A stretch of DNA of 62,471 nucleotides from a virus, in IMG/VR virus record IMGVR_UViG_3300046517_000713, positions 1 to 62,471 of that record; one strand, 5' to 3'. Of this stretch, positions 9,680 through 62,471 are shown one piece after another. How positions within the stretch are numbered: the stretch's first letter is position 1; each line of letters opens with the position of its first letter. Position numbers and translations under genes: made by a program. The notes beneath the pieces are model-generated. The model saw only the letters and a list, made by a program, of their open reading frames with translations. It was not told the DNA's origin and made no database searches.

Positions 9680-9846
9680 CTCGCCGGGGCGTCCGTCACC
9701 CACGGCGTCGACGCACGCTGCGCCCGCTGCCAGAGAGTGTCGGCCCGGACGTGACCCCGAGGCGTGCGGCAACTACCGCAGTCACTCGCCGAGGCGGACG
9801 TTCCAGCCGAGAGTCTGGGCCGCTCCAGGGCCTTCGTCCGAGCCAC
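9676..9846 (-). CDS. Hypothetical small protein
   Basis: A 56-residue protein read from GTG 9846 (begins MARTKALERPRL) with a CGSC pair in the middle. Stop overlaps the next ATG. No motif supports a function. The start is uncertain because 17 bases separate it from the HNH gene. Confidence 0.4.
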   Translation of the reverse strand: MARTKALERPRLSAGTSASASDCGSCRTPRGHVRADTLWQRAQRASTPWVTDAPAR

Positions 9847-9863
9847 GCCCGCACTCTGTCGAC

Positions 9864-10247: not shown

Positions 10248-10299
10248 CACGATCTCCTGCCCCCAGAGCGTACGCTCGTTTCTCCAGCGACGGGTGTAT

Positions 10300-10824
10300 T
10301 TATCCCGTCTCCGCCGCCAGGGCCTCCTCCGTCTTGACGTTGATCGCGTTGCGGACCGCGATGCGGAGGTCCAGCCTGCGAGGCTTCTCGAACGCCTCGA
10401 CTGCCCGCTTCGCGTCGAGCGCCTTCTGCCGGAGCGACTTGAGTTCGCCGACCTCGGCCGGGTCGAGCGGGGTGAAGTGATCGCCATACCCGTCGATCTG
10501 CTCCGCCGTCGCCCGGCCGTACCGGTTCTCGATCCGGGCCATGACCTTCCCCGTCCCGGCATGGAGGCCGGTCGCGACGCCCGGCGTGAGGGTGTTGTGC
10601 TCGGTGAACGGCACCTCGACGGTGACCTTCGCCTTCTTCGTCTCCCGCATCAGCTTGTCGTAGACGCCCTTGAGCGTGTCCTCGCTGATGAAGATACGCC
10701 GAGGCTCGGCCTGGTCGACCCGGAACGACGCGGTGTTGTCCCGGTTGACGTGGAGCATCACCGAGAACTCCTCGCCGCGCACGTTCAGCGTCGCGACGGG
10801 CATCTCCGCACCTTGCGCGGCCAT
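10300..10824 (-). CDS. Hypothetical protein
   Basis: A 174-residue soluble protein: N-terminal beta-rich part (ATLNVRGEEFSVMLHVN) and C-terminal charged helices. The start ATG 10824 has a good GAGAGG ribosome site. Immediately upstream lies a large hairpin (10870-10948). No family recognised; possibly a nucleic-acid related early protein, but this is only from position. Confidence 0.65.
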   Translation of the reverse strand: MAAQGAEMPVATLNVRGEEFSVMLHVNRDNTASFRVDQAEPRRIFISEDTLKGVYDKLMRETKKAKVTVEVPFTEHNTLTPGVATGLHAGTGKVMARIENRYGRATAEQIDGYGDHFTPLDPAEVGELKSLRQKALDAKRAVEAFEKPRRLDLRIAVRNAINVKTEEALAAETG

Positions 10825-10869
10825 CGTTACCTCTCTCCCCTTCCCGATCTGAGAAGCGGAGGGAGAGCA

Positions 10870-10948
10870 GGATCGCGGGCGGCGCAGCCAGTTCCCGCTT
10901 TCGCGTGAGGCAGACGAGCCACTTCCCGGCTCGCGCCGCCCACGATCC
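10870..10948. other. Long imperfect hairpin in leader region
   Basis: Arms 10870-10885 and 10933-10948 (left arm begins GGATCGCGGGCGGCGC) pair over 16 positions with one mismatch, enclosing 47 bases. It fills most of the 141-base gap between two leftward genes (10825-10965), 46 bases before the next start. It could be an attenuator, an RNA-stability element or a terminator without a clear U tract. Confidence 0.55.
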
Positions 10949-10965
10949 CGCACTCCCCTCGTCGC

Positions 10966-11217
10966 TCAGTTCATCGCCGGGTCCGGTCCCACCCCGACCG
11001 GCATGACCATCTCGGTCAGGAGCGGCTCGTCCGGCGGGGCGAGCACGCCGTCCGGGTCGAACACCTCCAGCCGGATCGCGTGTCCGGCGTCGAGGGCTTC
11101 CTTCGCCCGCTCACCGGACGCGGCACCGGCCAGCCCGGCCGAGTCGTGGTCGTCGAGTTCGTACGTCTCGACGAGGTCGTCCTCGACGTAGAGCTTCGCG
11201 ATCAGTCGTCCATCCAT
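10966..11217 (-). CDS. Hypothetical acidic protein
   Basis: An 83-residue acidic protein (begins MDGRLIAKLYVEDDLVETYE). ATG 11217 has GGAGG a few bases upstream. No family recognised. Confidence 0.6.
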   Translation of the reverse strand: MDGRLIAKLYVEDDLVETYELDDHDSAGLAGAASGERAKEALDAGHAIRLEVFDPDGVLAPPDEPLLTEMVMPVGVGPDPAMN

Positions 11218-11233
11218 CTCGAATCACCTCCTC

Positions 11234-11563
11234 TCAGGCAGTGGCCCCGGCCGCCGCCAGGCGGGCGCAGACCCACTGGAGTCCGTTCGGCGGGCCGCAG
11301 TGGTCCGCCCATCCTTCGAGCACGGCTTCCACGCGCTCCTCCTCGGAGATCACGCCGAGGATCACGACCGTCGGCGGTCCCGACGACTTGCGCTGCGAAT
11401 AGGCGTACACCTCGCCGGTGTCGAAGATCCACGAGACCCGGTGGCGCGGCCAGTCGATGTCGCGCTCCTTCCACCAGACGCCGAAGTCCAGTTCCCGGGA
11501 GAACTTCCGCCGAGGGTCGGCGGCGTACATCTCCTCGATCGTCTCGAACGTCTCACCCGTCAT
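11234..11563 (-). CDS. Hypothetical protein
   Basis: A 109-residue alpha/beta protein with many Trp residues (VWWKERDIDWPRHRVSWIF). ATG 11563 lies 11 bases inside the preceding gene, so translation is coupled. No family recognised. Confidence 0.6.
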   Translation of the reverse strand: MTGETFETIEEMYAADPRRKFSRELDFGVWWKERDIDWPRHRVSWIFDTGEVYAYSQRKSSGPPTVVILGVISEEERVEAVLEGWADHCGPPNGLQWVCARLAAAGATA

Positions 11564-12092
11564 CGGGGCCTCCCACGTCGACGCTGATGTCGTCGGGCGT
11601 CCAGGCGACGCACGGCCCGGGGACCGAGGCGTCGAACACGGCCTCGTGCAACCCGCCGAGATGCTCCGTCAGGAGCGGCGTCGCCACCCGGACGAACTCC
11701 TCCGGCTCGCCGTCCAGGTGCTTCGAGACGCACCGGGCGACGAGACCGCCGAGGTCGCGGGCATCCAGGAACGGGCGGCAGTCGTCGCACGCTCCCCAGC
11801 CCAACTCGTCGTTATCGGCGGTGACGATGTTCGCACGGCCCGGCATCTCCGTCTCGTGGATCACCGGGTAGCGCACCCGCAGCGTCCAGCGCGGACCCGG
11901 CTGGCAACAGAAGTCGCAGACCGGCTCGATCGGGTTGATCCGGTCGGCGTGCCAGCCGTCCGGGGCCTTCGAGATGCACTCGTCGCAGAGTTCGAGACCC
12001 GGCGGCAGACTGCCGGGGGCCTTCGTGCGGTACACGGCCTCGCCGCCGCACCACTGGCAGCGGACGCCGGTCGCAGGTGCCTTGTTCGCCAT
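11553..12092 (-). CDS. Cys-rich zinc-binding protein
   Basis: A 179-residue protein with four CxxC groups (CQWC, CDEC, CDFCC, CDDC within the first 105 residues), suggesting two zinc knuckles or a treble-clef arrangement. ATG 12092 follows an excellent GAGGAGG ribosome site. It may bind nucleic acid, but no named family fits. Confidence 0.65.
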   Translation of the reverse strand: MANKAPATGVRCQWCGGEAVYRTKAPGSLPPGLELCDECISKAPDGWHADRINPIEPVCDFCCQPGPRWTLRVRYPVIHETEMPGRANIVTADNDELGWGACDDCRPFLDARDLGGLVARCVSKHLDGEPEEFVRVATPLLTEHLGGLHEAVFDASVPGPCVAWTPDDISVDVGGPDDG

Positions 12093-46900: not shown

Positions 46901-48784
46901 TTACGAGGCGTTGCAATACGCCGACGGGTCGGTGTCCGTCGCGCCCCGGCCGGTGGCGCAGAGCGTCGAGGTCACCTTGAGCGACGTGATGACCTTCGGC
47001 ACCACGGCTTCCCACGACTCCGAGAAGAACCGGTAGTCGTTGGTGTTGTTCAGGACGGAGTCCCGGACGATCCCGAGGTCGAGGGTCCCGGCGTCTGCCC
47101 GAGCGAACGTGCCCTCGGGGAACAGGTACCAGACGACCTTCGAGGACGCCGTGCCAGCGCCGGGCGGGAAGTTCGGGATGTCCGCCCCGGCCTGCGCCGG
47201 GTTAAACAACTGGGTCGTGGTGCCGCCGCCGGTGGCGGTGTCCTCGTAGAACGTCGGCGAGACCTTCGCCGCTGCGAACACGGCCGCGAGGATCGACGTG
47301 GCGTCGGTCGTGAACCGCTCCAGCCCGTCTCCGGCGTGCATCGCCGCGAGGTCGGCCTGGATGAAGTCACGGAACCACGCCGGGATGAAGGCGTGGAGCA
47401 TGGCCTCGGCGGGCATCCGGTTCGTGTTGCGAACCATCGCCGCCGCCTGGTTCAGGTAGTGGGCGAAGTCGGCGAGAGCGCCGAGCACGGAGGTCGTGGT
47501 CTGGGCGGTCGAGTTCGAGTCGACCTGCCGGAGCAGTTCGGACTCGGCCCGGCGTGCCCACACACTGGCGACGTTCGCCATCACGGTCCGCACCAACTCG
47601 GGGAAGGCGCGGGCCTCGAAGTTGCCGATCTGGACCTGCTCCAGGATCGCCTCGGTCGTGACCGTCAGCGGCGAGGGGCAGGCCATCGTGTAGAAGGGCT
47701 TGGTCGTGCCGCCGGGAGCGAGGTCCACGGCGTTCGTCCAGACCGAGACGCCGGACCCGGCGGCCTGGGCGGCCGAGGACGGGATGTCGGTGAACTTCGG
47801 CGGCTGGAGGACGATGATCTGTCCCCGGTCCGCCTGGACGGTCGGGAGGTACCCGGCCACCGGGCGCTGCGTCCCGGCGATCTGCGGCAGGGTGTAGTCC
47901 GGCATCGCCGGAGCACAGAACCCACCGGAGGCGGTGACCACGTCGGGGTCGAGGCCCTGGGCGGCGAGCGCGTCGGGCGTCCACCGGTCGGGCATGAAGG
48001 CGTCCCGCATGAACGCGTCCATCTTCGGGTTGTAGAACTCCGGCGACAGGCCGCTCATGTTGTGGAGCTTGCGCTCCTCGGGGAACTCCAGGCGCATCGT
48101 CGCGATCGGGACGTTCTCGATCGCGTCGCTGCCCATGCCCCGGAACCGGTCGAACTTCTCGATCGCGACCTTCGTGATCTCGTCGAGGTCGGTGAACGAG
48201 CCGGTCTCGGTCAACTGCCAGCGAGGCACGTCGACGGTGATCGCGTGCGACGGTCCGGCGTGCTCGGGCGGGGTGAGCGTCGAGAGCGCCGGGACCGGCG
48301 TGGGAGCCGGAGCCGCGGGGGCCGGGTCGGTCGCCACCGGGGCCGGTGCGGGGTCCGCCGGAGCGGGCGCAGCGGGAGCCGGAGCGGGAGCCGCCGGAGC
48401 CGGAGCCGGGGCCGGGGCCGGAGCGGGGGCGGGAGCCGGGGCCGCCGGGTCGGTCGCCGCAGGAGCGGGAGCCGGGTCGGCGGGCGGGTCGGTCGGGGCC
48501 GGGGGCGTGATCTCCAGCCCGAGGCGTGCGGCCTGCTCGTCGGCGAGGCGCTGCGCTTCGGCAGCCGCCTCGGCACGGACCTCCAGGACGTAGGCGAGGC
48601 CCTCGAAGTGGTCGGCGATCGTGGAGAGCGTGCCCACCACGTCCTCGACCTCGGTCTCGCCTGCCCGCACGTTCATCGCGATCTCGCGAAGCTCGGAGCG
48701 CAGGGCTTCGAGCGTCTCGACGGTGGCCGCTTGCACCAGGCCCTCGTCGGCGAGTGCTGCGATGATCTCGTTCAGCCGGTCCAT
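46901..48784 (-). CDS. Major capsid protein with fused scaffold domain
   Basis: A 627-residue protein from ATG 48784. Residues 1-90 are a coiled-coil scaffold or delta domain, 95-165 an Ala/Pro repeat tract, and 180-627 an HK97-fold capsid (TRPxx block IAGTQRPVAGYLPTVQADRG; C-terminal LGIVRDSVLNNTNDYRFFSE and WEAVVPKVITSLKVTS). The maturation protease encoded upstream probably removes the N-terminal scaffold after assembly. Confidence 0.85.
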   Translation of the reverse strand: MDRLNEIIAALADEGLVQAATVETLEALRSELREIAMNVRAGETEVEDVVGTLSTIADHFEGLAYVLEVRAEAAAEAQRLADEQAARLGLEITPPAPTDPPADPAPAPAATDPAAPAPAPAPAPAPAPAPAAPAPAPAAPAPADPAPAPVATDPAPAAPAPTPVPALSTLTPPEHAGPSHAITVDVPRWQLTETGSFTDLDEITKVAIEKFDRFRGMGSDAIENVPIATMRLEFPEERKLHNMSGLSPEFYNPKMDAFMRDAFMPDRWTPDALAAQGLDPDVVTASGGFCAPAMPDYTLPQIAGTQRPVAGYLPTVQADRGQIIVLQPPKFTDIPSSAAQAAGSGVSVWTNAVDLAPGGTTKPFYTMACPSPLTVTTEAILEQVQIGNFEARAFPELVRTVMANVASVWARRAESELLRQVDSNSTAQTTTSVLGALADFAHYLNQAAAMVRNTNRMPAEAMLHAFIPAWFRDFIQADLAAMHAGDGLERFTTDATSILAAVFAAAKVSPTFYEDTATGGGTTTQLFNPAQAGADIPNFPPGAGTASSKVVWYLFPEGTFARADAGTLDLGIVRDSVLNNTNDYRFFSESWEAVVPKVITSLKVTSTLCATGRGATDTDPSAYCNAS

Positions 48785-48908: not shown

Positions 48909-48952
48909 GGCAGGCGCGCAGGCCGAAAGCAACGACCTGCGCGCAACCTGCC
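48909..48952. terminator. Terminator-like hairpin upstream of capsid gene
   Basis: GGCAGG-CGCGCAGG pairs with CCTGCGCG-caa-CCTGCC around a 13-base loop. It begins at the last base of the metallohydrolase stop codon on the minus strand and would end that small transcript before the capsid gene. The gap 48785-48908 holds no gene that I can support. Confidence 0.55.
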
Positions 48953-49425
48953 TACGCAGCCCGGGCCTTCTCGAACCGGTCCGGGTCCTTCCACTCGACG
49001 CCCAACTGGCAGAACTGCTCACGGAGCAGGTCGTAGCAGTCGACGCCGAGCACCTCGCGCACGAGGTCGAGGTACACGGCGGCGAACCGCCAGCCGTGCT
49101 TCGCTCCTGGCGCTGCGATCAGATGCGCCAACTCGTGGAGGATGTACCACGACCGCCGGGCGATCTTCGGCAGCGTGACGTAGACGCCGTCCCACCCGCG
49201 GTCGGCGTGGCCTCGGCGGCTGCCGTTGCCGGGCTTGACCGTCACCTTCGACGGCACCCGCCGCCCGTACTTGTCCCGGAGCCGCTTGCGGCGCAGGACC
49301 CGGTCGACGAACCGCTGGCAGTCCTTGACCGTCTCGAACCCGGCCATCGGCTGCTCGCCGTACTTGAGGTACCCGAACGCCGCCTGCTCGGCGAGGTAGA
49401 GCTTCCCCATCTGGGTATCCCTCAT
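48952..49425 (-). CDS. HExxH metallohydrolase (TIGR04338-like)
   Basis: A 157-residue protein from ATG 49425 (ATGA overlap with the small gene upstream). It has the zinc site HELAH (about residues 96-100) in SWYILHELAHLIAAPGAKHG, with a further His at HGWRF, as in SprT-like and TIGR04338 putative metallohydrolases common in actinobacteria and their phages. Substrate unknown. It lies with a small gene in a separately controlled unit inside the head genes. Confidence 0.7.
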   Translation of the reverse strand: MRDTQMGKLYLAEQAAFGYLKYGEQPMAGFETVKDCQRFVDRVLRRKRLRDKYGRRVPSKVTVKPGNGSRRGHADRGWDGVYVTLPKIARRSWYILHELAHLIAAPGAKHGWRFAAVYLDLVREVLGVDCYDLLREQFCQLGVEWKDPDRFEKARAA

Positions 49426-49619
49426 GCCATCACCCCCGCCCGCCGTCGAGCGGTCATCCGCTCCTGGTAGGTGCTCCAGCCGTCGAGCGCCCGGTCGAAC
49501 TTCGCCCGGACCTCGGGACCGTCCTCGGGGCAGAGGCCCCCGAGGTAGATGTGCGGGAGGCCGCACCGGCCGCAAGGTTGCGGCTTCGACTCCTCCCGCT
49601 TGGTGAGTCCGTTCGCCAT
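49422..49619 (-). CDS. Small zinc-binding protein
   Basis: A 65-residue protein from ATG 49619 with PCGRCGLPHIYLGGLC (Cys pairs around residues 16-30), a small zinc site, and a helical C-terminus. Its strong AAGGGGGAAC ribosome site and an upstream dyad show that it heads its own operator-controlled unit. Confidence 0.6.
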   Translation of the reverse strand: MANGLTKREESKPQPCGRCGLPHIYLGGLCPEDGPEVRAKFDRALDGWSTYQERMTARRRAGVMA

Positions 49620-49679
49620 CTGGTTCCCCCTTCATTACCGAATGGATTTCATCCGATACCACCATTCTACTAAATGGCG

Positions 49680-49697
49680 ATACCGGGAATCCGGGAC
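49680..49697. promoter_or_regulatory. Operator dyad, copy F
   Basis: ATACCGG-GAAT-CCGGGAC, 61 bases upstream of the leftward gene at 49619. A TAGAAT on the minus strand (49673-49668) may be the -10 box, so the dyad would overlap the -35 region. It shares 17 of 18 bases with copy E. Confidence 0.6.
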
Positions 49698-49809
49698 GGA
49701 GGGGAGTTGACCAGGGCAAACGCCGGAGGCCGATTCTGAAAGTGCTGGTCAGACGAAAGTTTATTTGGGGCTTGACAGGGTTCGCGCCGTTTCATAGGAG
49801 AGCGCGACG

Positions 49810-50633: not shown

Positions 50634-50900
50634 TTACTGGGTGTTCGTGACGGTGACGGTGATCGTCTGAGCGCCGCCGCCGGGAGCGAACCCTGCGTTG
50701 GCGTTGCCGGAGATCGCGACGCTCACCGGGTCGCCGGGACGGCCGACGTACTGGGCAAGCTCGGCCGCGACCTCGACGGCCTTCGCGAACTGCTGGCGTT
50801 CCTCCTCGCCTGCGGCACCGAAGCTCGGGACGCCAGCCGCGATCGCCTTCGACTTGACCTGCGAATGGTCGCCGCCGCCCGACTTGTGGCCGAACGCCAT
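50634..50900 (-). CDS. Hypothetical protein after maturation protease
   Basis: An 88-residue protein from ATG 50900 with a helical middle and a C-terminal beta strand rich in Thr and Val (QTITVTVTNTQ). ATG overlaps the protease stop. Could be a head decoration or completion protein; only the position supports this. Confidence 0.55.
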   Translation of the reverse strand: MAFGHKSGGGDHSQVKSKAIAAGVPSFGAAGEEERQQFAKAVEVAAELAQYVGRPGDPVSVAISGNANAGFAPGGGAQTITVTVTNTQ

Positions 50901-52504
50901 CAGTCGCCGCTCCCGCAGTTGAGGGCCTTGCCCCGCTTGTTGATATGCGCCTGGACCGCCGGGCGCTTCGCTGCCGGTGCCCGGCCGATCGCACGGCGGG
51001 CGTTCATCCAGTCGTCGCAGTTCTCGATCGGGAACGACCCGTCCGGCATGGCGGAGCCGGAGGAGGCGGCCTTCTTCCGCTGCTTCGTGGTGAAGTCCCG
51101 CAGACCGTCGATCCGGTAGGCGGCGAGCGCCCAGGCGTCGTCGGGAAGCAACTCGATCCCGGCGTGGGCGAAGTGGTCCAGGGCAGGGCCGGTCAACTCG
51201 CCGATGTTGGCTGCGGCGTACCGGTCCTGGGCCACTTGGACCGACTCGGCCGGGACGGCGAGACGGCCGACGATCTTGTCGAGCGCGAGGGGCGTGAGAG
51301 CGTCGAGGATCGGCTGGGCGTGCCGCTGGAACGAGCGAAGCTCGGCGACCTCCCGGGCGGTCATCTCGGCCGACTCGGCCGGGTCGACCTCGGGCCGCTG
51401 GATGACTCCGGCGGCGACGAGGCTCGTCTGCTCGTCCTCCTGGGCGAGGTGGAACTTCGTGCGCGGCACCGGGAAGCCGGGGACGTTCACGGCGAGGACG
51501 GCGACGAGTTCGAGCTTCCCGCCGATGCGCCGCCAGTCGCCCGACAGGCTCGCTCCACGGAGTTCAGCGAGGCGGGCGGGGGAGATGTCCGGCCGGACCG
51601 CTCCGCAGACCCAGGGGCCGTGCTGGCCGTCTCGGACGACGATGTCGGCGGCGACGTAGCCGGTGTGCTCGTAGTGGAGGTCCGTCTCGGCCGGAGACAT
51701 CCCGGGCCGGGCGTGCTCGGTGCCGAGCGTGATCGTCCCGGTGGCGATCTCGGCTTCGTTGGCGTCGCCGGGGCAGTCGCACGAGGTCCGGGTCGCGCCG
51801 GTGGCGAAGTAGTGGTAGGTGCATCCCTGCGGCGGGGTGACGCAGACGCCCGGGCGGCCGATATGGCAGGTGCCCCAGGCGGCGAGGTGACCGAAGCACT
51901 GGAGGTCGTCGGTGACGGTGAACGGCGTCAGCTTCGGCGGCTCGGGCACCGCGAACCACGCCTCGGGGGCGAGGCCCTCACGGCGGACGACGGTGGCGGA
52001 CGCTGCGACAGGCTCGGCGGGTTCCTGGTCGACGTTCGACATCGACGCCCCTGCCAGAGCGGGGAACGGACAGGCGGTCCCGCCGAGCACCTCTCCCGAC
52101 TTGTAGTTGAGTTGCGGCTTCGCGCAGTCGCCGTCGGGTCCGTCCTCCAGGCACTCCATCTCGGCGTCGGCGTTGCCGATGTCGGCCGAGACGCCGAACT
52201 TCGTGTTGCCGTCGCCGTCCTTGCGCTGGTCGACGACCTTCTGGAGTTCGTTCCCGACCTCGGAGTCGTCGTAGGTGCCCTCGAACATCACGTTGTCGCC
52301 GTCGCGCCAGATCCGCTCGATGTTGCCTGCGAGCTTCGCTCCGGCGTGCGGGTTGCCGCCCAGGAGACCGCCTGCGGGCGTCTCGGACTGGTACATCAGC
52401 GGCAGCGGCGGCTCCCGCCAGGTGAGCGCCCCCTGCTGGACGAGGCGGCCGTCGCTCGTCGGCACCCCTTCGGTGACCAGGATGCCTCGGAAGCGGTTAC
52501 CCAT
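50900..52504 (-). CDS. Capsid maturation protease
   Basis: A 534-residue protein starting at ATG 52504, which follows AGGAG at 8 bases. The N-terminus RFRGILVTEGVPTSDGRL, a central zinc-like Cys/His region (CFGHLAAWGTCHIG ... CDCPGD), WRRIGGKLELVAVLAVNVPG and a C-terminal AMPDGSFPIENCDDWMNARR block are features of actinophage capsid maturation proteases. The frame is also open upstream into the ART-like part, so a 941-residue fusion is formally possible. Confidence 0.78.
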   Translation of the reverse strand: MGNRFRGILVTEGVPTSDGRLVQQGALTWREPPLPLMYQSETPAGGLLGGNPHAGAKLAGNIERIWRDGDNVMFEGTYDDSEVGNELQKVVDQRKDGDGNTKFGVSADIGNADAEMECLEDGPDGDCAKPQLNYKSGEVLGGTACPFPALAGASMSNVDQEPAEPVAASATVVRREGLAPEAWFAVPEPPKLTPFTVTDDLQCFGHLAAWGTCHIGRPGVCVTPPQGCTYHYFATGATRTSCDCPGDANEAEIATGTITLGTEHARPGMSPAETDLHYEHTGYVAADIVVRDGQHGPWVCGAVRPDISPARLAELRGASLSGDWRRIGGKLELVAVLAVNVPGFPVPRTKFHLAQEDEQTSLVAAGVIQRPEVDPAESAEMTAREVAELRSFQRHAQPILDALTPLALDKIVGRLAVPAESVQVAQDRYAAANIGELTGPALDHFAHAGIELLPDDAWALAAYRIDGLRDFTTKQRKKAASSGSAMPDGSFPIENCDDWMNARRAIGRAPAAKRPAVQAHINKRGKALNCGSGD

Positions 52505-53725
52505 CAGTCGGTCTCCTGCGTGGACAGCGGCGTTCCCAGGGAGTGTGGCAGACAACCGTCCCGGGTCGGTGGAATGTCCACGGCCGATGCCGGGCCGGAT
52601 CGCGCCGTTGCGGAGGTTGAGCCAGACCACTACCGGGTCATGGATAGCCGATGCGATCAGCGACTTCGCGACGCCGGTCTGCTCCAGGGTGACTCGGGTC
52701 GTCGCGACGGCGTTGTCGAAGCCTTCGGCTGCGTCGGAGGTCGTGAAGCCCAGGCCGCCGTCCTGGGGCGGGACGTACCAGCCGTCCTCGACGCTCGTGA
52801 CCTGGAAGGTCCCGCCGGTGACGGCCTCGAAGCCGCCGTCGATGTTGAGAGCCGTACCGGGACCGGCAAGCTGGAGGACCGTGGCGTGGTCAGTCGTGCC
52901 GCCCCTGACGTAGTTCGGTGCGCCCGGCTCGCGGGTGGCGTACTCCATCGCCTGGTCGATCGACGACATCGGGTCGCCGCCGAACCCCTTGAGCGGCTCG
53001 CCGGTGAGGTCGGAGATGTTCCGCTGGTACTCCTCGTTCTGCGGGCCGCCGATGATGAAGCTGCCGAGCGAGAAGCCGACCTCCTGGCCGTTCGCCTGCG
53101 CGTCCCGGAACTCTTGGGCGATGTCGCCGGACGGGTCGTTCATGCCCCGGACGAGTTCGTCAGCCGAGTTGTAGTTCAGCGTCTCGATCTGAGGCGTGAC
53201 TCCGGTGTCCTGGTTCTCGATCGTGTTGCCGTTGTACGCACCCTCGGGGACGTTGCCGTTCAGCGCACCGAGGAGTTCGTTCGACAGCGCCGCCGGGCGC
53301 TCGCCGACTTCGGTGCCGTCGCCGTGGCCCATCAGCGAGTCGGCGGCGTTCTGCATCGCCGCGGACTCCCCGAACCCGTACTGCCAGTTCGTCGCCGCCT
53401 CGGAGAGCGCCTCGGGCGATCCGGGCGTGAACTTCCCGGCGTCCTCGCGGGCGGTCGCCTCGTCGAGTCCGGCTGCTGGCCCCCATAGATCGGCGTGCTG
53501 GTAGCCGCCGCCCATCTGGGCGTACTTGTCGGCCTCCTGGTGGGCGTTCTGGGCGACGTGGACCTTCGCCTGGTCGGTCGTCGGGTTCACGTCCCCCGTC
53601 TTACGGGTGAGGAACTTCGCCGCCTTGTCCTTCGTGGCACCGGTCGGTGACCACTTGCCGTGCTCGTCTCGCGGCTGGTTCGGGTCGAACTCGAAGCCGA
53701 CCCGGTGGATGACGGCCCGGCGCAT
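52504..53725 (-). CDS. ADP-ribosyltransferase-like head-associated protein
   Basis: About 405 residues from ATG 53725 (TGATG with the portal stop). The N-terminus FDPNQPRDEHGKW is a motif of phage head and MuF-linked proteins. Residues 186-312 follow the ART layout: ELVRGM (Arg193), GFSLGS (Ser219) and GGFEAVTGGTFQVTSVE (Glu300). It may be carried in the capsid and modify host proteins after injection. As sequenced the frame continues into the protease; the TGA at 52506-52504 lies in another frame, so a frameshift near 52560-52620 is suspected. Confidence 0.6.
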
Positions 53726-56238
53726 CAGCCGAGCGTTTCGGCAGGAGGCTCCCGGTTGGCGGTCTGCTCGATCACGTCGCACTGGCAGCCTGGGTGGTCG
53801 TCCGGCCAGTACGAGTAGACGAACGGGAAGTCGCCCGGGTCGGCGGACAACTGGTCGTCGGCCCGGCCGGAGATCTCCGTGCCGCCGAGATCCTGGTGCG
53901 GCTCGAACGGCCGCTGCGGAGCGCCTGTCACCCAGACGTACCCGGTGACTTCGAGGTCGGCCTGGTCGAACGCCGAGTGGATGTCGGTGCCGGAGAGGAG
54001 ACCGGCGGTCGTGTCGCCGTCGGCTCCGCCTCCCGCTTCGATCAGCGCCGTGCGGATCAGCCCGGCGGGGACCTCGAACCCGTCGTACTCGCCCTTGTCG
54101 GGCGGCGGCTCCCCGGGCTTGTAGATCAGCCCGGCTGCGAGGGCGAGGAGACCGGCGGACAGGACCGCCCAGCCTTCGGCCCGGTGGTTCGCCTGGTCCT
54201 GGGCGATCAGGTCGAGGTCGCCTTCGGTGATGTCGCCGTTGTCGGCGATCGCGGCGAGGGCCTGCTCCTGCGCCCGGGCCGTCCACGTCTCGAACTTCGA
54301 GCCGAGCGCGTCGATCGACCCGTCGCCGACGAGGAGATCCTCGGCGCTCGTCGCAAGCTGGGCGACCTTCTCGGGGCCGAGCACCTTCGCGAGTTCGAGC
54401 GTCGGGACGCCCTTCGCGATCTCGCGGGTGTCGTTGCGCTTGTTCGCCAGGTTGCGGAGCCGGTTCCCGGCACGCTCCAGGGCGCGGCGCATGACGGCGT
54501 CGGCTTCGTGCTGGAGGCGGCCTCGCAGCGTCGACTCCAGTTGCACGAGCCGGATGCCGAGCGGAGCGATCCCGGCCGCGCCGACGAGGCTCGCCATCGA
54601 CGGCAGGTTCGCCGCTGCGGCCCGCTTCGGGGCGTTCGGCTGGGTCGCTCCCGGCTTCTGGGTGCGCGCCGGTCCCGGCTGGGTGCCGCCGGGGTTGTTC
54701 GGGTCGGCGTTCGGGTTGGCCCCCGGCGGGGCGGCTTCCGGCGGCGGGTTGTCGCCTTCCTGGGGCGGGGACTTCTCGCCCGGCTCGACGGGAGCGCCTT
54801 GCGCCTGGTCGACGGGCAGGAGACCGGTGAGGAGTTGCTCGGGCGTCGGGATCGGCTGGCCTGGAGCGAGGCGGAGCCGCTTGAGGATCTCCTGCCACGC
54901 CCGCTCGGCGACTTCGGCCCGGTCGGGAGCGTCGTCGTCGGCGTAGTTGTGCGCCCGCCGCCACGCGTCACCCGAGAGGACGATCCGGTCGTAGCCGTCG
55001 TTGGCGGACTTCTCCCGGTCGGGGTGGTTAATGAGGTCCGACGGGTCGTACCAGAGGAAGAACCGCTGGAGGTCCGGGATGTTCATGGCCGCGAGGTGCG
55101 GCCGGAAGTAGCCGATCGTCAGCGCCGCCCAGAGCACCTGCGCGTCCGGTTCGAGGTGGTACTTAAACGCCTCCTCGGAGACCTGCCAGGCGGTCCAGTG
55201 GTTGAGGTCGACCTTGCCCTGGAGCACCTCGGCCGGGAGGTCGATGCCGGTCGCGATGCGGGCGATGACCTCGGCGCGCTGCTCGGCGTAGAGCTTGTCG
55301 ATCTCCCTCTTAAACTCGATCGGCTTGAGGCCCTTCTCGATGTCGTCGATCTCGCCGAACAGGAGGAACGGGACGACGGCGGAGGCGGACCGGCGGTTCG
55401 TGATCGGCGTCTCGAAGTGCTCGATCAGGTCTCGGACGACCGGGTCGTTGGCGGCTTCGTCGGCCTGGCCGGTCATCGTCTCGTCGATCGGCCCCTGGGA
55501 GCGGAAGCCGTGCGACAGAGCGAGGATTCCGGCGGGGATACGGGACGTGGCCCCGGCCCGGATCGCGTCGGTGAGGACCTTGAGTTCCTCGCAGAGCGGC
55601 AGGACGCCTCGCATCTGCGACCACGACCACGACGAGAACCGTGGGTGACGCTGGTAGAGGCGACAGATGAACGTCTCCTCGGGGAGCGTCTCGACGTTCT
55701 GCGGGCCGGACTCCTCGACGAGACGGCGGGCGAAGCCCGGGCCGTTCGGGTTCTTCACCAGTTCCTCGACGGAGACGACATCCCAGAACTCGCCGCCACG
55801 GTCCGGGTCGTTGTACCCGAGCAGGTAACCCTCACCGGCGACGGCGATGTTCAGCGCCCCGAGGCGCTGGATCTCCGACAGGGGATGCTCCGAGGAGCCG
55901 AGCCGGTCGATCGTCGCGTTCAGCGCCGTGCGTTCCTCGTCGGTGAGGTCGAGGTCGTCGTCGCCGTCCGGGTCGACGAACACCGGAGGCTCCCGAGGGT
56001 CGGGGCGCATCGCCGGGGCCATCCGCAGCCGAGCCAGCGCGCTCGACTGGTACGTCATGGCGTAGGAGATCTCGGCGAGGTCGTCGAAGTACCGCCAGGA
56101 GTCCTTCTGCCAGTCCTTCGCCCCCCGGCGGATGCGGGCCGCTTCCTCCTCGTCGGACGGCTCGATGATCTTCGCGGCGGCGGTGACCGACGAGCCGGGC
56201 GAGTGCGTCCGGCGGAAGCGGTCGAGAATCGAGGCCAT
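53725..56238 (-). CDS. Portal protein fused to MuF domain
   Basis: An 837-residue protein from ATG 56238. Residues 1-480 are a portal (WRYFDDLAEISYAMTYQSSA and VDLNHWTAWQVSEEAFKYHL blocks), followed by a Pro-rich linker (about 495-545) and a MuF-type head morphogenesis domain ending in YWPDDHPGCQCDV (about 813-825). MuF domains sit inside the capsid at the portal vertex. The separate MuF gene of many phages is fused to the portal here. Confidence 0.85.
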   Translation of the reverse strand: MASILDRFRRTHSPGSSVTAAAKIIEPSDEEEAARIRRGAKDWQKDSWRYFDDLAEISYAMTYQSSALARLRMAPAMRPDPREPPVFVDPDGDDDLDLTDEERTALNATIDRLGSSEHPLSEIQRLGALNIAVAGEGYLLGYNDPDRGGEFWDVVSVEELVKNPNGPGFARRLVEESGPQNVETLPEETFICRLYQRHPRFSSWSWSQMRGVLPLCEELKVLTDAIRAGATSRIPAGILALSHGFRSQGPIDETMTGQADEAANDPVVRDLIEHFETPITNRRSASAVVPFLLFGEIDDIEKGLKPIEFKREIDKLYAEQRAEVIARIATGIDLPAEVLQGKVDLNHWTAWQVSEEAFKYHLEPDAQVLWAALTIGYFRPHLAAMNIPDLQRFFLWYDPSDLINHPDREKSANDGYDRIVLSGDAWRRAHNYADDDAPDRAEVAERAWQEILKRLRLAPGQPIPTPEQLLTGLLPVDQAQGAPVEPGEKSPPQEGDNPPPEAAPPGANPNADPNNPGGTQPGPARTQKPGATQPNAPKRAAAANLPSMASLVGAAGIAPLGIRLVQLESTLRGRLQHEADAVMRRALERAGNRLRNLANKRNDTREIAKGVPTLELAKVLGPEKVAQLATSAEDLLVGDGSIDALGSKFETWTARAQEQALAAIADNGDITEGDLDLIAQDQANHRAEGWAVLSAGLLALAAGLIYKPGEPPPDKGEYDGFEVPAGLIRTALIEAGGGADGDTTAGLLSGTDIHSAFDQADLEVTGYVWVTGAPQRPFEPHQDLGGTEISGRADDQLSADPGDFPFVYSYWPDDHPGCQCDVIEQTANREPPAETLG

Positions 56239-56578: not shown

Positions 56579-57583
56579 TCAGTCCTCGACGGGGTAGCGG
56601 GTGTCGTGGGCCATCGCCCACTCGATGATCGCGTCGCCCGCCCGCTCGGCTGCCCGGCCGTCGAGGGTGTGGCCGTAGACGTGCTGGACGCACTCCCGGC
56701 GGCGGGCCTTCTGCGCCGGGTGGTCCTCCAGAGCTTCCCGGATGCCGTCGACCCAGTTCGCCCGGTGGTTGACCTGGACGCCCGAGTCGGCCCATTCCCA
56801 GAACCGGAGGCCGTGGTTCATCTGCTCCCGGTAGAGCGGCGAGTTCAGCCAGACGACAGGACGGTCGGTGACGGCCATGAACTCGAACCCGAGGCTGGAG
56901 TTGTCGACCGAGAGCACGTCGGCCCAGCGGATGATCTCGTCGGCATCCTCGGTCCACTCGAACTGGCGGCCGAACTTCTCCGACAGGTCCCGGTACCGGT
57001 ACTCGACGCGTTCCTGGAGACGAGGGTGGGCGGTGGCGATGATCGAGTAGTTCGCGGCGACCTGCTCGATCATCGACTCGAAGTACGTCCAGCCGGTGCG
57101 GGTCTCGTGGACGAGGTGGCAGTCCCAGTGCCACGTCATCCCGACGACCGGGTAGTCGAGCGCCCCCCGCTCGGGCCGTTGCTCGCCGCCGGTCACCCAC
57201 TTGTCGAGGCGCGGGCAGCCGACGACGGCCATCATCGGATTCGACCCGACGCCGTGCGGGTAACGAGCACGGTTGCGGTCAGCGACCTCGACGTTCGGGC
57301 AGAGGAACAGACTGATCCGCTCGCGGTCCTTCCCGCCGGAGTAGCCGCCGTGGTCGATCGAGCGGTACGTCTGCCCGGCTCCGTGCTCCAGGAGCGCGAC
57401 AGGCCGGGACTGGGGGACGAACTTGAGGTCGCCGTGCGCGGCGATCACCGTCGGGACACCGTCGTCGAGGGCGGTCGGGCCGTGGTGGAGGCCGATCTCG
57501 ACGCCTCGGAGGGCGAGGTCGTCCCGGACAGGCTCCAGGTGGGCGGCGTAGTGGCGCTCGGTGGCGACGAAGTCGACCCTCAC
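56579..57583 (-). CDS. CDP-glycerol glycerophosphotransferase-like GT-B enzyme
   Basis: A 334-residue protein from GTG 57583. GT-B layout with EHGAGQTYRS (about residue 66), ATAHPRLQERVEY and DVLSVDNSSLGFEFMA (about 225-240), similar to the CDP-glycerol glycerophosphotransferase-like / GT-B glycosyltransferase group. It may transfer a polyol phosphate or a sugar. GTG overlaps the lipoprotein stop. Confidence 0.72.
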   Translation of the reverse strand: MRVDFVATERHYAAHLEPVRDDLALRGVEIGLHHGPTALDDGVPTVIAAHGDLKFVPQSRPVALLEHGAGQTYRSIDHGGYSGGKDRERISLFLCPNVEVADRNRARYPHGVGSNPMMAVVGCPRLDKWVTGGEQRPERGALDYPVVGMTWHWDCHLVHETRTGWTYFESMIEQVAANYSIIATAHPRLQERVEYRYRDLSEKFGRQFEWTEDADEIIRWADVLSVDNSSLGFEFMAVTDRPVVWLNSPLYREQMNHGLRFWEWADSGVQVNHRANWVDGIREALEDHPAQKARRRECVQHVYGHTLDGRAAERAGDAIIEWAMAHDTRYPVED

Positions 57584-58218
57584 GGCAGGACGACGGCGAG
57601 CACCGGGTGTAGCTCGATCCCGTTCGGTGCGACGCCTGCCTGGCCGTGGATGCGGTCGAAGAACCCGACGCCGGTGACCGTGATCGGCTTGCCGACCTTC
57701 GTGAGCGTGCCTGTCGGCGGGTACCGGGCGTCGAACGCCTGGCGGGTCGCCGTGATCGACGGGAGGAACGGCGAGGAGGGGCCGACGCACGCCGGGGACG
57801 GAATCTCGGCGATCATCGTGTTCGAGCCGTCGGACAGGACGAGGTGAACGTCCGAGTCGGCCTCGACCTTGTATTCGACGAGCGTCGCCGTGATCTGGTA
57901 CTCGCTCGTCTCGACGCCGGGGACTCGGGCCGTCGGGTTCACCGGGGCCTTGAGCTTGTCGAGCGCGGCGATCGTGGACGGCTTCACGAGACGACCGACG
58001 TTCGTGGCGGTCAGGTCCGCGCCTGTCTTGACATCCCACCGTTCGACGCCGCACGACCCGGACAGGGTGCGGGTGACGGGTTCGTTCTCCGTCTCGTGCC
58101 GTGCCACCGGCGCTGAACCCGACCCGCCGGAGCAGGCCCCGAGGCCCAGCGCGAGGAGCACGGCAGCGAACACGCGGGTCCCGGCCCCGGGACACCCGGT
58201 GAGGCGAGGCCGGGACAC
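57580..58218 (-). CDS. Predicted lipoprotein
   Basis: A 212-residue protein from GTG 58218. N-terminal hydrophobic segment with lipobox ALGLGAC (Cys about 29). The mature part is beta-rich and ends in VGFFDRIHGQAGVAPNGIEL HPVL-like sequence, known from conserved exported bacterial proteins with an OB-like fold. It would be anchored outside the cell membrane; its place among glycan genes suggests a link to the surface. Confidence 0.65.
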   Translation of the reverse strand: MSRPRLTGCPGAGTRVFAAVLLALGLGACSGGSGSAPVARHETENEPVTRTLSGSCGVERWDVKTGADLTATNVGRLVKPSTIAALDKLKAPVNPTARVPGVETSEYQITATLVEYKVEADSDVHLVLSDGSNTMIAEIPSPACVGPSSPFLPSITATRQAFDARYPPTGTLTKVGKPITVTGVGFFDRIHGQAGVAPNGIELHPVLAVVLP

Positions 58219-58223
58219 CGCGA

Positions 58224-58538
58224 TCAGTGCCCCTCGAACGGGCTGGCGTCCCGCAGGGAGCGCAGGTCGTCCACGTCGGCGATCGTCAGGTCCGGCGGCG
58301 GCTTCGCCCCGGCCTTCTCCATGAGGTGACGGCCGAAGCGTTCGAGAGCCGACTGGGTCCAGAACGTGACGAGCGACGTGTCCGGGGTGTGGATCGTGAG
58401 CCGGTACGCCCTCTCGCCTGTCGGCGCGGAGCCGAAGTCCTCGACTCGGTACTCGCACGGCACCGGCGCGATCGAGACATCGTCACGCGGCGGGGCGTTC
58501 ATCGGAGGGCGTTGCGGCTGCGGCGGGGTGGGTGTCAT
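58224..58538 (-). CDS. Hypothetical protein
   Basis: A 104-residue protein from ATG 58538 with a Pro-rich N-terminus and an alpha/beta remainder (ERAYRLTIHTPDTSLVTFW). No family recognised. Confidence 0.55.
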   Translation of the reverse strand: MTPTPPQPQRPPMNAPPRDDVSIAPVPCEYRVEDFGSAPTGERAYRLTIHTPDTSLVTFWTQSALERFGRHLMEKAGAKPPPDLTIADVDDLRSLRDASPFEGH

Positions 58539-58549
58539 AGCAGGCGACC

Positions 58550-59629
58550 TTAGAGTCCGAGCGTCTTGATCCAGTGGACCCTCAACGCATCCCACGAGTT
58601 CGTCTCGGCCCAGTCGTCCATGAGCTTCGAGCACCGGGCGACGAGGTCGGGTTCGGTGGCGAACCGGTCGATCACGTCTGCGAGCGCCTCGGGCCGGGCG
58701 TCGTACACCTCGAAGCGCCCCCCGATCATCTGATCCCGCTGGGTGTTCTGGGCGAGGATCGGGACCAACTGGTCGGGCGGGAACCACTCCGACTGGGGCG
58801 GGACGTTGAGCGTGATGACCGGCATCCCGAGCGAAGCGGCTTCGAGCATCGGCATCGACAGGCCGCCATACCGGCGAGGCAGGACCAGTACGTCGGCGGC
58901 GTCGTACAACTGGATGTTCAGCTTCGACGGCGGCCAGTGAGCGACGCTCACCTGCCCGACGGTCTCCTTCTCGGCGAGGCCGGACGGTTCGCCGCCGAGC
59001 GGCCCGGCCGCGGTTCGCAGGCCCCGAGTCTTTAGCCGGATCGGGGTGCGGACGTGATGAAGCGCAGCGGCGACGAGGCCGGTGCCGTTCCGGTCGAGCA
59101 TCGCCGGGGCCGCGAGGTGGAGGAACTGCGGCGCACCGTCGAACGACGCCGACGGGCGGCGGGTGAACCGGAACCGCTTGCGGTCGACGGGCATCGGGAG
59201 GATCTCGCCGCCGTGCATCCGTTCCTGGAGCCAGGGCGTCGGGAGGACGATGCGGGTCGTCGGCCCGAGGTACGCCTTGCGGAACAACTCGGGGTTCGCG
59301 TGGAGGACGAACTCGACGTTGGCCGAGGCGGCCATCGCCGGGAACTGGAACGTCGGATTGTCGCCCTCGACGAACAGGGGACACTCGGCCGTGTAGACCA
59401 CGTCGCACCGTTCGAGGAGCCAGGCCGCGTCGTCACGGCTGGCGGGCCACTTCGAGACCCGCACGTCGGGGACGGCCTTCTCCCACGGCTTGATGTCGTA
59501 GTCCCCTCGGCGGCGGGTGCCGAGTTCGGGGATCAGCGCCGCGGCGCAGTCGAGGTTCTGAGCGACGGAGAGCGTCTGGGAGGCGAGGCCGCCCTGGTCG
59601 GCCCGGCCGATGATCCCGAGGCGTCGCAT
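58550..59629 (-). CDS. GT4-type glycosyltransferase
   Basis: A 359-residue GT-B glycosyltransferase from ATG 59629 (TGATG with the dehydratase-like gene). N-terminal LGIIGRADQGGLASQTLSVA is a GT4 start; the donor-binding region reads YDAADVLVLPRRYGGLSMPM then LEAASLGMPVITLN (about 240-275), with the E-x7-E type motif in its GT4 form. It probably adds a sugar made by the neighbouring enzyme. Confidence 0.85.
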   Translation of the reverse strand: MRRLGIIGRADQGGLASQTLSVAQNLDCAAALIPELGTRRRGDYDIKPWEKAVPDVRVSKWPASRDDAAWLLERCDVVYTAECPLFVEGDNPTFQFPAMAASANVEFVLHANPELFRKAYLGPTTRIVLPTPWLQERMHGGEILPMPVDRKRFRFTRRPSASFDGAPQFLHLAAPAMLDRNGTGLVAAALHHVRTPIRLKTRGLRTAAGPLGGEPSGLAEKETVGQVSVAHWPPSKLNIQLYDAADVLVLPRRYGGLSMPMLEAASLGMPVITLNVPPQSEWFPPDQLVPILAQNTQRDQMIGGRFEVYDARPEALADVIDRFATEPDLVARCSKLMDDWAETNSWDALRVHWIKTLGL

Positions 59630-60585
59630 CAGCCGACCACCTGACGGAGGCAGGCGTTCAGCGTCGAGGGCGGCTTCCAGCCCATGTTCGTCAGGCGGCC
59701 TTCGAGATGGGCGTACTCGTCGTCGTAGCCGGGTCTCGTGGCGGACCCTTCGACGAGCCGGTACTGGAGGTCGCGGCCCATGATCCGGGCGATCTCCTCG
59801 GCGAGTTCGAGGTTCGAGCGCCGCTCGCCGCCAGGCAGGTTGTACCGCTCCGGCCATCCGTTCACGAACGGCTGCGCCCGGCGGAGGACGAACCGGACGG
59901 CGGAGGCGACGTTGACGACCGGGTTGTAGTACCGGACGCCGGGCTGGCCGTCAGGGCCGACGTGGATCGGGACTTCCACGCCGAGGCGGACGAGGTGGAT
60001 GATCTTCGGGACGAACTTCTCGGTGTCCTGGCGGGGGCCGACGATGTTGTTCGAGTTCGTGATGATGACCGGCACCCGGTAGGTCCGCCAGTACGAGATC
60101 CCGATGGCTTCCTGGGCGGCCTTCGACGCTGCGTACGGGTTCGAGGGCAGCACCGGCGCGGACCATTCCTCGATCGAGTCGGCGGTCGTCTCCCGGAACG
60201 GGGCCGCGCCGTACACCTCGTCGGTCGAGAACTGGAGGAACGCCCGAGGCCGGTGATGACGGGCGTACTCCAGCATCGACAGGGTCGACGAGACGTTGTT
60301 CTCGATCGTGGCGACCGGGTCCTCGATCGACCGGTCGACGTGCGAGTCGGAGGCGAAGTTCAGGATGTAGTCGAAGGTCACGCCGAACTCGGGGATCGGG
60401 CCGCGCAGGTCGTGGGTGACCACGGCGATCCGGGTCCGGTCGATGTTGTCGACCAGTCTGAGCGGCGAGCCTCGGTGCCGCCACGACGAGATCAGCGTGA
60501 ACCGCCAGTCCGTCTTGAGGAGCAGGTACCGCAGCACGTTCGAGCCGACGAACCCGCTCGCGCCGGACATCAGGACCGAAGTCAT
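59629..60585 (-). CDS. NAD-dependent epimerase/dehydratase (RmlB-like)
   Basis: A 318-residue extended SDR enzyme. NAD motif GASGFVGSN (8-16), catalytic STDEVYG (120-126) with Thr-Asp-Glu as in nucleotide-sugar 4,6-dehydratases, and Y151-x3-K155. This would convert an NDP-hexose to a 4-keto-6-deoxy sugar, the donor precursor for the island glycosyltransferases. No later deoxysugar enzymes (RmlC/RmlD type) were seen, so the host may supply them or a simpler reaction is used. Confidence 0.88.
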   Translation of the reverse strand: MTSVLMSGASGFVGSNVLRYLLLKTDWRFTLISSWRHRGSPLRLVDNIDRTRIAVVTHDLRGPIPEFGVTFDYILNFASDSHVDRSIEDPVATIENNVSSTLSMLEYARHHRPRAFLQFSTDEVYGAAPFRETTADSIEEWSAPVLPSNPYAASKAAQEAIGISYWRTYRVPVIITNSNNIVGPRQDTEKFVPKIIHLVRLGVEVPIHVGPDGQPGVRYYNPVVNVASAVRFVLRRAQPFVNGWPERYNLPGGERRSNLELAEEIARIMGRDLQYRLVEGSATRPGYDDEYAHLEGRLTNMGWKPPSTLNACLRQVVG

Positions 60586-60995
60586 GCCGCCGCCCTCCAG
60601 TGGATCTCGTCCGGCTCCCTCTGCGACCAGATGACGTGGCCGTCGCCCGGCGAGACCATGAAGCGTTCAGCGCCTCGGATGCGGATGCTTGTGCCCGGCG
60701 CTCGCCAGGTGAACGCCCGGTCCTTCGTGACCTCCTCGCCGCAGAGGTAGCAGTACCACCACGGCGCGCCGTGGCTGCCCATCTGCCCCGCCATCGACCC
60801 GACCCATTCCTTCGGGTGGGTGCAACCGTTCGTGGTCGGGGTGGCGAACACCCACTCGTTCGTGATGGCGAGCGGCTCGGGGCCTGACTCGCCGACGATG
60901 GTCGGCCCGTCCCACGGTGCGGGGGCCTGATCCTCCCAGTCGGGGTACGGGATGCGTTGCCACCAGGACCGCAGCCTGCGCCAGAGGCGTCTCAC
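60582..60995 (-). CDS. Hypothetical Trp-rich protein
   Basis: A 137-residue protein from GTG 60995 overlapping the stop of the two-domain glycosyltransferase. N-terminal basic-aromatic helix (RRLWRRLRSWWQR), then WWYCYLCGEEVTKD with a CxxC. Possibly a membrane-associated zinc-containing accessory of the glycan enzymes; not a known family. Confidence 0.55.
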   Translation of the reverse strand: MRRLWRRLRSWWQRIPYPDWEDQAPAPWDGPTIVGESGPEPLAITNEWVFATPTTNGCTHPKEWVGSMAGQMGSHGAPWWYCYLCGEEVTKDRAFTWRAPGTSIRIRGAERFMVSPGDGHVIWSQREPDEIHWRAAA

Positions 60996-62471
60996 GACGG
61001 GTTCCTGGGTGCGCCTTCGGGGATCTGGCCTTCGTACTCGAAGCGCATCGGGTACTTCGGCTCGTCGCCTCGACTGTCGAGATGCCGGGACCGCTTCATG
61101 CCGAGCGGCTCGGGGCCGTGCGGCGCGTACGCCCAGAGCCGCCAGTCCCACCAGCCCGCCTCGCCGTAGCGGCGGACCGCTTCGTGGACGACGCCGTACA
61201 TCACGTCCTCGATCATCGTGCGGGCCTCGGGCGCGAAGACGGAGAGCACCTGCCGGTAGAAGCGGGTCGAGGCGAGGTGCGGGCGCTGCCACCAGGCGCT
61301 CGTACGGATGAACTCGCGGCCTGTCACGGCCCAGTGGTTCAGGTCGTCGAGGTAGTTCCCGACGTGGTCGGGATGGATCTCGGTGTTCTCGACGAACTGG
61401 ATCATGTTCGCCTCACCGGACAGGGCGAACGCGACGCACTTCTGCCAGTCGATCGGGCCGACGAGGGGCGTGTCGTGCTCGGCGAACAGGATCAGCGGGG
61501 TCGTGACGAGGTCGAGCGCCGCCTTCGTCGCCGTGGCCTGGTGGCCCCACTCGCGCAGGAGCACCGGCGAGACGTTGTGCCAGGAGAAGTTCGTCCGCCA
61601 GAGGAGCCGGTGGACGTAGGCGTCGTACCGGTCCTTGAGGTGCTCCTGCTCGGGGCGGACGCCGTCGATCGCGACGAGGATCTCGGCGGTCGGTAGCTGG
61701 TCCCGGATCGAGTTGATCGTCTCCTCGATGTGGGCCGTCGAGGGTGCCTGCTCCGTCGGCGAGGTCGTGACGATCACCGTGATCGTGTCGTCCGGGCCGT
61801 TGTTGCGCTGCTCGTCGGGGTAGCCGCCGATCTGGGCCACGTCTCGGATGTCCGTGTCGAGGTCGTGGGCCTTCGCCCGCTTCCACGACTGCCAGTACGC
61901 CCAGCACGCGTTCGCCCAGGGCAGCCAGTTCCGCCGCCAGCCGCGCAGGTTGTCGACCATCTCGTTCCAGGCGTGGACCGTCGGGAACGGGTGGTCGGGG
62001 AACACGAGCGACCAGTAGTCGAACTGCGGGTCCTCGGGCTTGACGAGGTCGAGGATCGGGATGCACCCGGCCTCCAGCGCCTCCTCGACGCGGGCGGTAC
62101 AGAGCGACTTCGGGCCGGACGGGCAGGGGACGAACTTCGTGCGGGTGAGCGCCGAGAGGTACGTCAGCTTCGTCGGGTCGGGGTCGTCGTGGGGGATGGC
62201 TTCCTTGAGGTAGCCGTCCGTCTCGGCGAACAGGAACCGGGTGTCGCCCCGCTTGCGGAGCCGTCCGGCGGCGGCGGCGAACTCCTGGCGGCGTTCGTGG
62301 GTGATCTGCCCGGCGAACATCCAGTCGAGGTCGCGCTGCGTCTCGGGGTCGGCGTACGCCCGGGCTTCGATCCCGGAATGATGGATCGCCGGGGCGGTCA
62401 GGTGGTTCCGGGTGCCGGGGTTCCAGCCGCACGGCATGTACCGGGCGGCGATCGTCTGCTGCTGCGGGATG
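60992..62471 (-). CDS. Two-domain glycosyltransferase, main part (cut by contig end)
   Basis: Residues about 123-614 of the gene that begins at 515. The middle part has TKFVPCPSGPKSLCTARVEE followed by ALEAGCIPIL (about 232-262), matching the exostosin/GT47-type donor region. A second domain starts near residue 352 with DDTITVIVTTSP and contains LILFAEHDTPLVG, a GT-A (GT2-like) transferase. Two linked transferases may build a disaccharide unit. Stop overlaps the next GTG. Confidence 0.75.
   Translation of the reverse strand, partial: IPQQQTIAARYMPCGWNPGTRNHLTAPAIHHSGIEARAYADPETQRDLDWMFAGQITHERRQEFAAAAGRLRKRGDTRFLFAETDGYLKEAIPHDDPDPTKLTYLSALTRTKFVPCPSGPKSLCTARVEEALEAGCIPILDLVKPEDPQFDYWSLVFPDHPFPTVHAWNEMVDNLRGWRRNWLPWANACWAYWQSWKRAKAHDLDTDIRDVAQIGGYPDEQRNNGPDDTITVIVTTSPTEQAPSTAHIEETINSIRDQLPTAEILVAIDGVRPEQEHLKDRYDAYVHRLLWRTNFSWHNVSPVLLREWGHQATATKAALDLVTTPLILFAEHDTPLVGPIDWQKCVAFALSGEANMIQFVENTEIHPDHVGNYLDDLNHWAVTGREFIRTSAWWQRPHLASTRFYRQVLSVFAPEARTMIEDVMYGVVHEAVRRYGEAGWWDWRLWAYAPHGPEPLGMKRSRHLDSRGDEPKYPMRFEYEGQIPEGAPRNPS
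62322..62471. repeat. Terminal direct repeat, right copy
   Basis: Identical to bases 1-150 except G at 62448 (T at 127). See the left copy. It closes the map: gene order, strand and reading frame continue across the join. Confidence 0.9.

What the first reader, a model, noticed from the sequence alone, without database searches (positions are those of the whole stretch)
52504..53725. ADP-ribosyltransferase-like domain joined to the capsid maturation protease
The segment directly after the portal-MuF gene has an R-S-E pattern in the order of ART toxins (Arg193, Ser219, Glu300) plus a head-protein motif at its N-terminus. Phages such as T4 inject capsid-borne ARTs; MuF-linked toxins are known from prophages. 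A virion-delivered ART encoded next to, or fused with, the maturation protease would be unusual, and the protease could release it during maturation.
Basis: partly seen in the sequence, partly recalled or inferred. Interest (0 to 1): 0.75.

Follow-up and report, generated by a model that had tools for sequence, protein, structure and literature searches.

The report
Orphan head-cargo gene beside capsid protease
A phage carries an orphan gene, probably for a protein packed into its head, between its portal and capsid-protease genes; it sits where relatives encode ADP-ribosyltransferases and other injected enzymes, but the sequence itself does not prove that it is one, and its apparent fusion to the protease is probably two genes in the same reading frame.

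Summary
The ORF is real: window 50900-53725 (-), 941 codons, starting on the TGATG overlap with the portal-MuF gene. Codons 408-941 are an HK97-type capsid maturation protease (PHROG E 1e-59; conserved His460 and Ser513). Codons 1-407 are an orphan: no homologue in phages, plasmids, viral contigs or about 410 bacterial genomes. AlphaFold fails on the single sequence; given an alignment of true ARTs it returns a low-confidence ART-like model, which is not independent evidence.
The setting does favour a virion-delivered effector. The N-terminal tag FDPNQPRDEHGKW recurs in head proteins, often just before ART domains. The same MuF-to-protease slot holds PF03496 ARTs in 5 of 49 related records, and NUDIX or 2H domains in others.
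The 'fusion' is doubtful. M408 has a strong Shine-Dalgarno site and lies 17 codons before a conserved motif, as in stand-alone relatives. Codons 380-407 look non-coding.
Verdict: a likely head-packaged effector of unproven activity, possibly a divergent ART, next to the protease rather than built into it. ART cargo on phage head proteins is already published.

The parts
53725..56238 (-). portal protein with C-terminal MuF-like domain (837 aa)
   Evidence: phrog_776 portal E 4e-94; C-terminal part aligns with portal-MuF fusions of relatives; MuF assignment by homology and the Cys/His-rich end pattern, below Pfam cut-off
50900..53725 (-). whole open frame, 941 codons (cargo + protease as read from M1)
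53651..53686 (-). head-protein tag DPNQPRDEHGKW (residues 14-25)
   Evidence: 25 vs 1 shuffled hits in related head modules; 37 viral stretches
52691..53428 (-). orphan effector-like region (residues 100-345), possible divergent ART: helical lobe 100-190, core 190-345
   Evidence: no homologue or family; low-confidence ART-like model made with an ART alignment
53147..53149 (-). Arg193 (LVRGM), candidate ART strand-1 Arg
   Evidence: position; not significant; MAFFT does not put it in the Arg column
52961..52966 (-). Ser254-Ser255 (PMSSIDQAMEY), placed by MAFFT on the STS motif; a better candidate than Ser219
53069..53071 (-).
   Evidence: no support
52826..52828 (-). Glu300 (GFEAVTGGTFQV), placed by MAFFT on the catalytic Glu column; first Glu of ExE is Gly298
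52505..52588 (-). codons 380-407, no coding signature in any frame
   Evidence: codon log-likelihood negative; GC3 drop
52513..52517 (-). Shine-Dalgarno AGGAG, 8 nt before ATG408
   Evidence: -7.4 kcal/mol, like the other gene starts of the operon
50900..52504 (-). capsid maturation protease from M408 (534 aa): S78-like domain ~414-570, second conserved domain ~575-770
   Evidence: phrog_859 / phrog_18402; 855 phage records; H460 88% and S513 100% conserved in 95 homologues
46901..48784 (-). major capsid protein
   Evidence: phrog_777 E 1.5e-54

Best explanation
Codons 1-~385 encode a head-associated cargo protein: N-terminal tag, helical region, and a compact C-terminal domain. It occupies the variable 'cargo slot' between MuF and the capsid maturation protease. 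It is most likely made at a low level by translational coupling to the portal-MuF gene. It would be built into the prohead with the portal/MuF/protease complex and injected with the DNA, where its C-terminal domain acts on the host as an effector. An ART-like fold is the best single guess for that domain (about 40%); catalytic activity is less likely. The protease is a separate gene starting at M408 in the same frame. Shown: gene order, protease identity, tag, variable slot, internal start signals. Inferred: packaging, injection, effector activity, ART fold.
For: Tag shared with head proteins and preceding ARTs in 5 of about 31 distinct tagged ORFs. Same slot in relatives: PF03496 ART in 5 of 49 records (L024, L033, L039, L073, L129), also prophages L147 and L151; MuF-NUDIX-protease in Pam4; MuF, 2H, NUDIX and ART among protease-containing ORFs. 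M408: AGGAG at 8 nt, -7.4 kcal/mol; 17 codons before Asp425, as in stand-alone protease genes of L028, L045 and L121; codons 380-407 non-coding-like. MAFFT places SSIDQAMEY on STS and FEAVTGGTFQV on the Glu strand; model made with the ART alignment: pLDDT 55, pTM 0.47, nearly all top PDB matches are ARTs, best E 0.019, TM to the query about 0.3-0.44.
Against: No sequence homologue at all, so no conservation argument. ART profiles score it like shuffled sequence. Single-sequence AlphaFold fails (pLDDT 37), and the ART-like model inherits its fold from the alignment. No ExE, no clean STS. Nothing shows that the protein is in the virion.
Confidence: 0.5

Rival explanations
1. A real ART-protease fusion: M1 gives a 941-aa polyprotein packed in the prohead, M408 gives free protease, and the protease cuts the ART free inside the capsid.
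For: The frame is open from 53725 to 50900. Relatives carry real one-ORF fusions around the same protease: MuF-NUDIX-protease in Pam4, MuF-protease in several, protease C-domain plus PF03496 ART in Gordonia MAG prophage L149.
Against: Strong SD and homologous start at M408. Codons 380-407 non-coding-like in every frame; a 51-codon window over 357-407 scores as low as the lowest of 262 gene windows. A TGATG overlap in the +1 frame hints that the upstream gene ends there. ART identity unproven.
Confidence: 0.15
2. A catalytically active R-S-E ART as the first reader proposed (R193, S219, E300), separate from or joined to the protease.
For: Slot and tag statistics; R193 and E300 at plausible places.
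Against: R-S-E order is ubiquitous; S219 is not on the STS column and R193 not on the Arg column in the MAFFT alignment; profiles negative.
Confidence: 0.15
3. A different MuF-type effector (other toxin or enzyme fold) in the same slot.
For: The tag precedes many non-ART domains (about 25 of 31 tagged ORFs have no ART hit); the slot also holds NUDIX, 2H and glycosyltransferase genes.
Against: No family recognised.
Confidence: 0.3
4. A structural linker or scaffold-like segment without enzymatic activity, or a decayed cargo gene that lost its stop codon.
For: Orphan; degenerate catalytic motifs; some relatives have low-complexity stretches before the protease.
Against: Strong codon bias through codon ~355-385 argues for an intact gene; composition is not low-complexity.
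Confidence: 0.2

Closest known systems
MuF-VIP2/ART fusion proteins of actinophages (e.g. Microbacterium phage Percival gp4, Arthrobacter phage Reedo gp4)
   Same: Head-operon gene after the portal; a head-associated domain with an injected-effector candidate; PF03496 ART (PMC7302621)
   Different: The ART is fused to MuF/VG15 and recognised by Pfam; in the window MuF is on the portal, the cargo has its own start and no recognisable ART signature
Polyvalent proteins and head-packaged NAD/ADPr enzymes (PMC5512222, PMC9503650)
   Same: Effector domains attached to MuF, portal or the capsid serine peptidase, thought to be packaged and injected
   Different: Known families there; here an orphan domain
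MuF polymorphic toxins of temperate phages (PMC5576092)
   Same: MuF linked to variable toxin-like domain
   Different: There the toxin domain is in the MuF protein itself; mostly Firmicutes
Actinophage capsid maturation protease family (phrog_859/18402; Peptidase_S78 in some relatives)
   Same: Codons 408-941 belong here
   Different: The upstream region is not shared
T4 Alt
   Same: Proposed: virion-packaged ART acting at injection
   Different: No homology detected; Alt is not next to a protease-family gene of this kind (the Alt side from general knowledge)

Membership tests
PF03496 / VIP2-Alt-type ADP-ribosyltransferase | profile match to a curated ART family | tested here: not met
   Pfam and PHROG at E<=10: none; PF03496 in own record: no match; own ART HMMs no better than shuffles
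PF03496 / VIP2-Alt-type ADP-ribosyltransferase | Arg, STS and (E/Q)xE motifs | tested here: not met
   no STS; GFE instead of ExE; Arg position ambiguous
PF03496 / VIP2-Alt-type ADP-ribosyltransferase | ART fold | tested here: inconclusive
   single-sequence model pLDDT 37; with ART alignment pLDDT 55, ART matches E>=0.019, TM to the query at most 0.44
PF03496 / VIP2-Alt-type ADP-ribosyltransferase | NAD-dependent transferase activity | not testable with these tools
   -
HK97-type capsid maturation protease (Peptidase_S78-like) | family match of codons 408-941 | tested here: met
   phrog_859 1e-59, phrog_18402 4e-45; relatives reach PF04586
HK97-type capsid maturation protease (Peptidase_S78-like) | conserved catalytic His and Ser | tested here: met
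   H460 88%, S513 100% over 95 sequences
MuF-linked injected effector | effector domain in one polypeptide with MuF or another head domain | tested here: inconclusive
   adjacent to portal-MuF and in frame with protease, but probably separate gene
MuF-linked injected effector | head-protein tag before the effector | tested here: met
MuF-linked injected effector | presence in virions and injection | not testable with these tools

The most novel reading that the evidence does not exclude
A nested gene that makes two products, an effector-protease fusion (possibly a divergent ART) and the free protease, so that the capsid protease itself carries an injected effector into the prohead and releases it during maturation.
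Probability: 0.1. Interest if true: 0.6.

Novelty: new member of a known kind. Interest (0 to 1): 0.35.

Why it matters
It adds to the view that the stretch between MuF and the capsid protease is a swappable slot for head-packaged effectors (ART, NUDIX, 2H, here an orphan), and that the FDPNQPRD..G.W tag can be used to find such effectors. The ART claim as written would mislead annotation if taken at face value.

Tried and rejected
Homologues of codons 1-407 were sought in viral contigs with three seed sets, phages and plasmids, 48 related viral records and about 410 bacterial genomes. The four weak genome hits were taken as chance; two were read out, in a WD40 kinase (L162) and a peptidase-like protein (L164). 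hhalign against a 5-ART profile gave probability 0.1%. Block PSSM and HMM tests were negative. A frameshift reading of codons 386-407 was considered: frame +1 is only slightly better there, so it is left open. Reedo gp4, annotated 'capsid maturation protease and VIP2-like toxin', is VG15 + ART by Pfam, so it is not a precedent for an S78-ART fusion.

Full report
What is there. The window is a virus record of 62,471 bases. On the minus strand a head operon runs: portal with a MuF-like C-terminal part (53725-56238; phrog_776), then the open frame of the finding (50900-53725), small genes, the major capsid protein (46901-48784, phrog_777), and tail genes. The finding's segment 52504-53725 is codons 1-407 of a 941-codon open frame. 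Its ATG overlaps the portal stop as TGATG.

The protease. Codons 408-941 match the actinophage capsid maturation protease family: phrog_859 E 1e-59, phrog_18402 E 4e-45, and 855 phage records by tblastn. In 95 homologues the presumed catalytic His460 is 88% and Ser513 100% conserved. Some relatives reach Peptidase_S78 in Pfam. A second domain at about 575-770 has invariant His and a SGDWR motif and no Pfam name.

The ART claim tested. Pfam, PHROGs and NCBIfam give nothing for codons 1-407, or for sub-segments in Pfam and PHROGs at E<=10. Profiles built here from 12 and 20 true ARTs of related head modules recover each other strongly (leave-one-out block scores 27-85) but score the window like shuffled sequence: block score 3.1 against a shuffle mean of 3.7, with HMM results alike. 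AlphaFold on the single sequence fails (pLDDT 37). With the window aligned by MAFFT to nine ARTs, AlphaFold gives pLDDT 55 and pTM 0.47, and Foldseek then finds almost only ARTs at the top, but weakly (best E 0.019, TM to the query about 0.3-0.44). That model takes its fold from the ART rows, so it shows compatibility, not identity. MAFFT puts S254-S255 (not S219) on the STS column and E300 on the Glu column, and does not put R193 on the Arg column. I put an ART fold at about 40%, activity lower.

Why an injected effector is still the best guess. First, the tag. FDPNQPRDEHGKW at residues 13-25 belongs to a motif seen 25 times in related head-module ORFs against 1 in shuffles. A pattern scan found DPNQPRD..G.W in 37 viral stretches. 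By my count there are about 31 distinct tagged ORFs; six contain an ART by profile, and in five of them the ART follows the tag. Second, the slot. Relatives were found by the protease and by the portal-MuF. In 49 of their records PF03496 matches in five, each upstream of the protease: MuF-ART in L024 and L039, MuF(with intein)-tag-ART in L033, a NUDIX-...-ART polyprotein in L073, portal-MuF-ART in L129. Prophages L147 and L151 also have MuF-ART before the protease, and in L149 the protease C-domain and an ART share one ORF. Pseudanabaena phage Pam4 has MuF-NUDIX-protease. Among 35 protease ORFs, Pfam finds MuF in 7, 2H in 2, and NUDIX, ART and ferritin-like in one each.

Fusion or two genes. 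The frame is open throughout. But ATG408 has AGGAG at 8 nt (-7.4 kcal/mol, like other starts of the operon; M1 has -1.1). It lies 17 codons before Asp425, the same distance as the SD-preceded starts of stand-alone protease genes in L028, L045, L121 and others. Codon statistics are good in frame to about codon 385, negative in codons 380-407, and good again from 408 (GC3). A TGATG overlap in the +1 frame at M408 fits the operon's other junctions. So the protease is most likely its own gene. A read-through fusion from M1 would still be made if the sequence is correct; a lost stop or a frameshift error cannot be excluded.

What is known. ARTs fused to MuF and portal, and Nudix fused to the capsid serine peptidase, with packaging and injection proposed, are in PMC9503650; polyvalent proteins in PMC5512222; the Percival MuF-VIP2 fusion and portal-MuF fusions in PMC7302621; MuF toxins in PMC5576092. 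The window therefore offers an orphan member of a known kind of arrangement.

Limits. Homologue searches with the search for related loci use exact 8-residue seeds and would miss distant relatives. The count of tagged ORFs is by eye. MuF in the window's portal is by homology only, since Pfam does not reach it.

Noticed in passing
L033 (ORF 1443-5303) and L100 (ORF 7613-11893): An intein-like insertion (PF14890) inside the MuF domain upstream of the capsid protease.
   Followed up: partly
L149:3430-6888: Gordonia MAG prophage ORF that joins the C-domain of the capsid protease family to a C-terminal PF03496 ART: a clearer protease-ART fusion than the window; the S78 part seems to lie in the preceding ORF.
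   Followed up: partly
related protease ORFs (alignment A4): Ferritin-like, zinc-ribbon, 2H phosphoesterase and NUDIX domains fused to the capsid protease family.
   Followed up: no
window 48952-49719 (-): Small protein with a HELAH zincin-like metallopeptidase motif between protease and major capsid genes.
   Followed up: no
window 56579-62437 (-): Nucleotide-sugar epimerase (phrog_540) and glycosyltransferase-looking genes beside the portal; L089 has a GT2 gene between portal-MuF and protease.
   Followed up: no
window codons 575-770 of the protease (about 51416-52003, -): Second conserved domain of the protease family with invariant H613, H621, H671, H684-Y685 and SGDWR728-732, without a Pfam name.
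   Followed up: no
L166-L202: The tag DPNQPRD..G.W precedes many unidentified domains in phage proteins and could serve as a bait for head-packaged effectors.
   Followed up: partly
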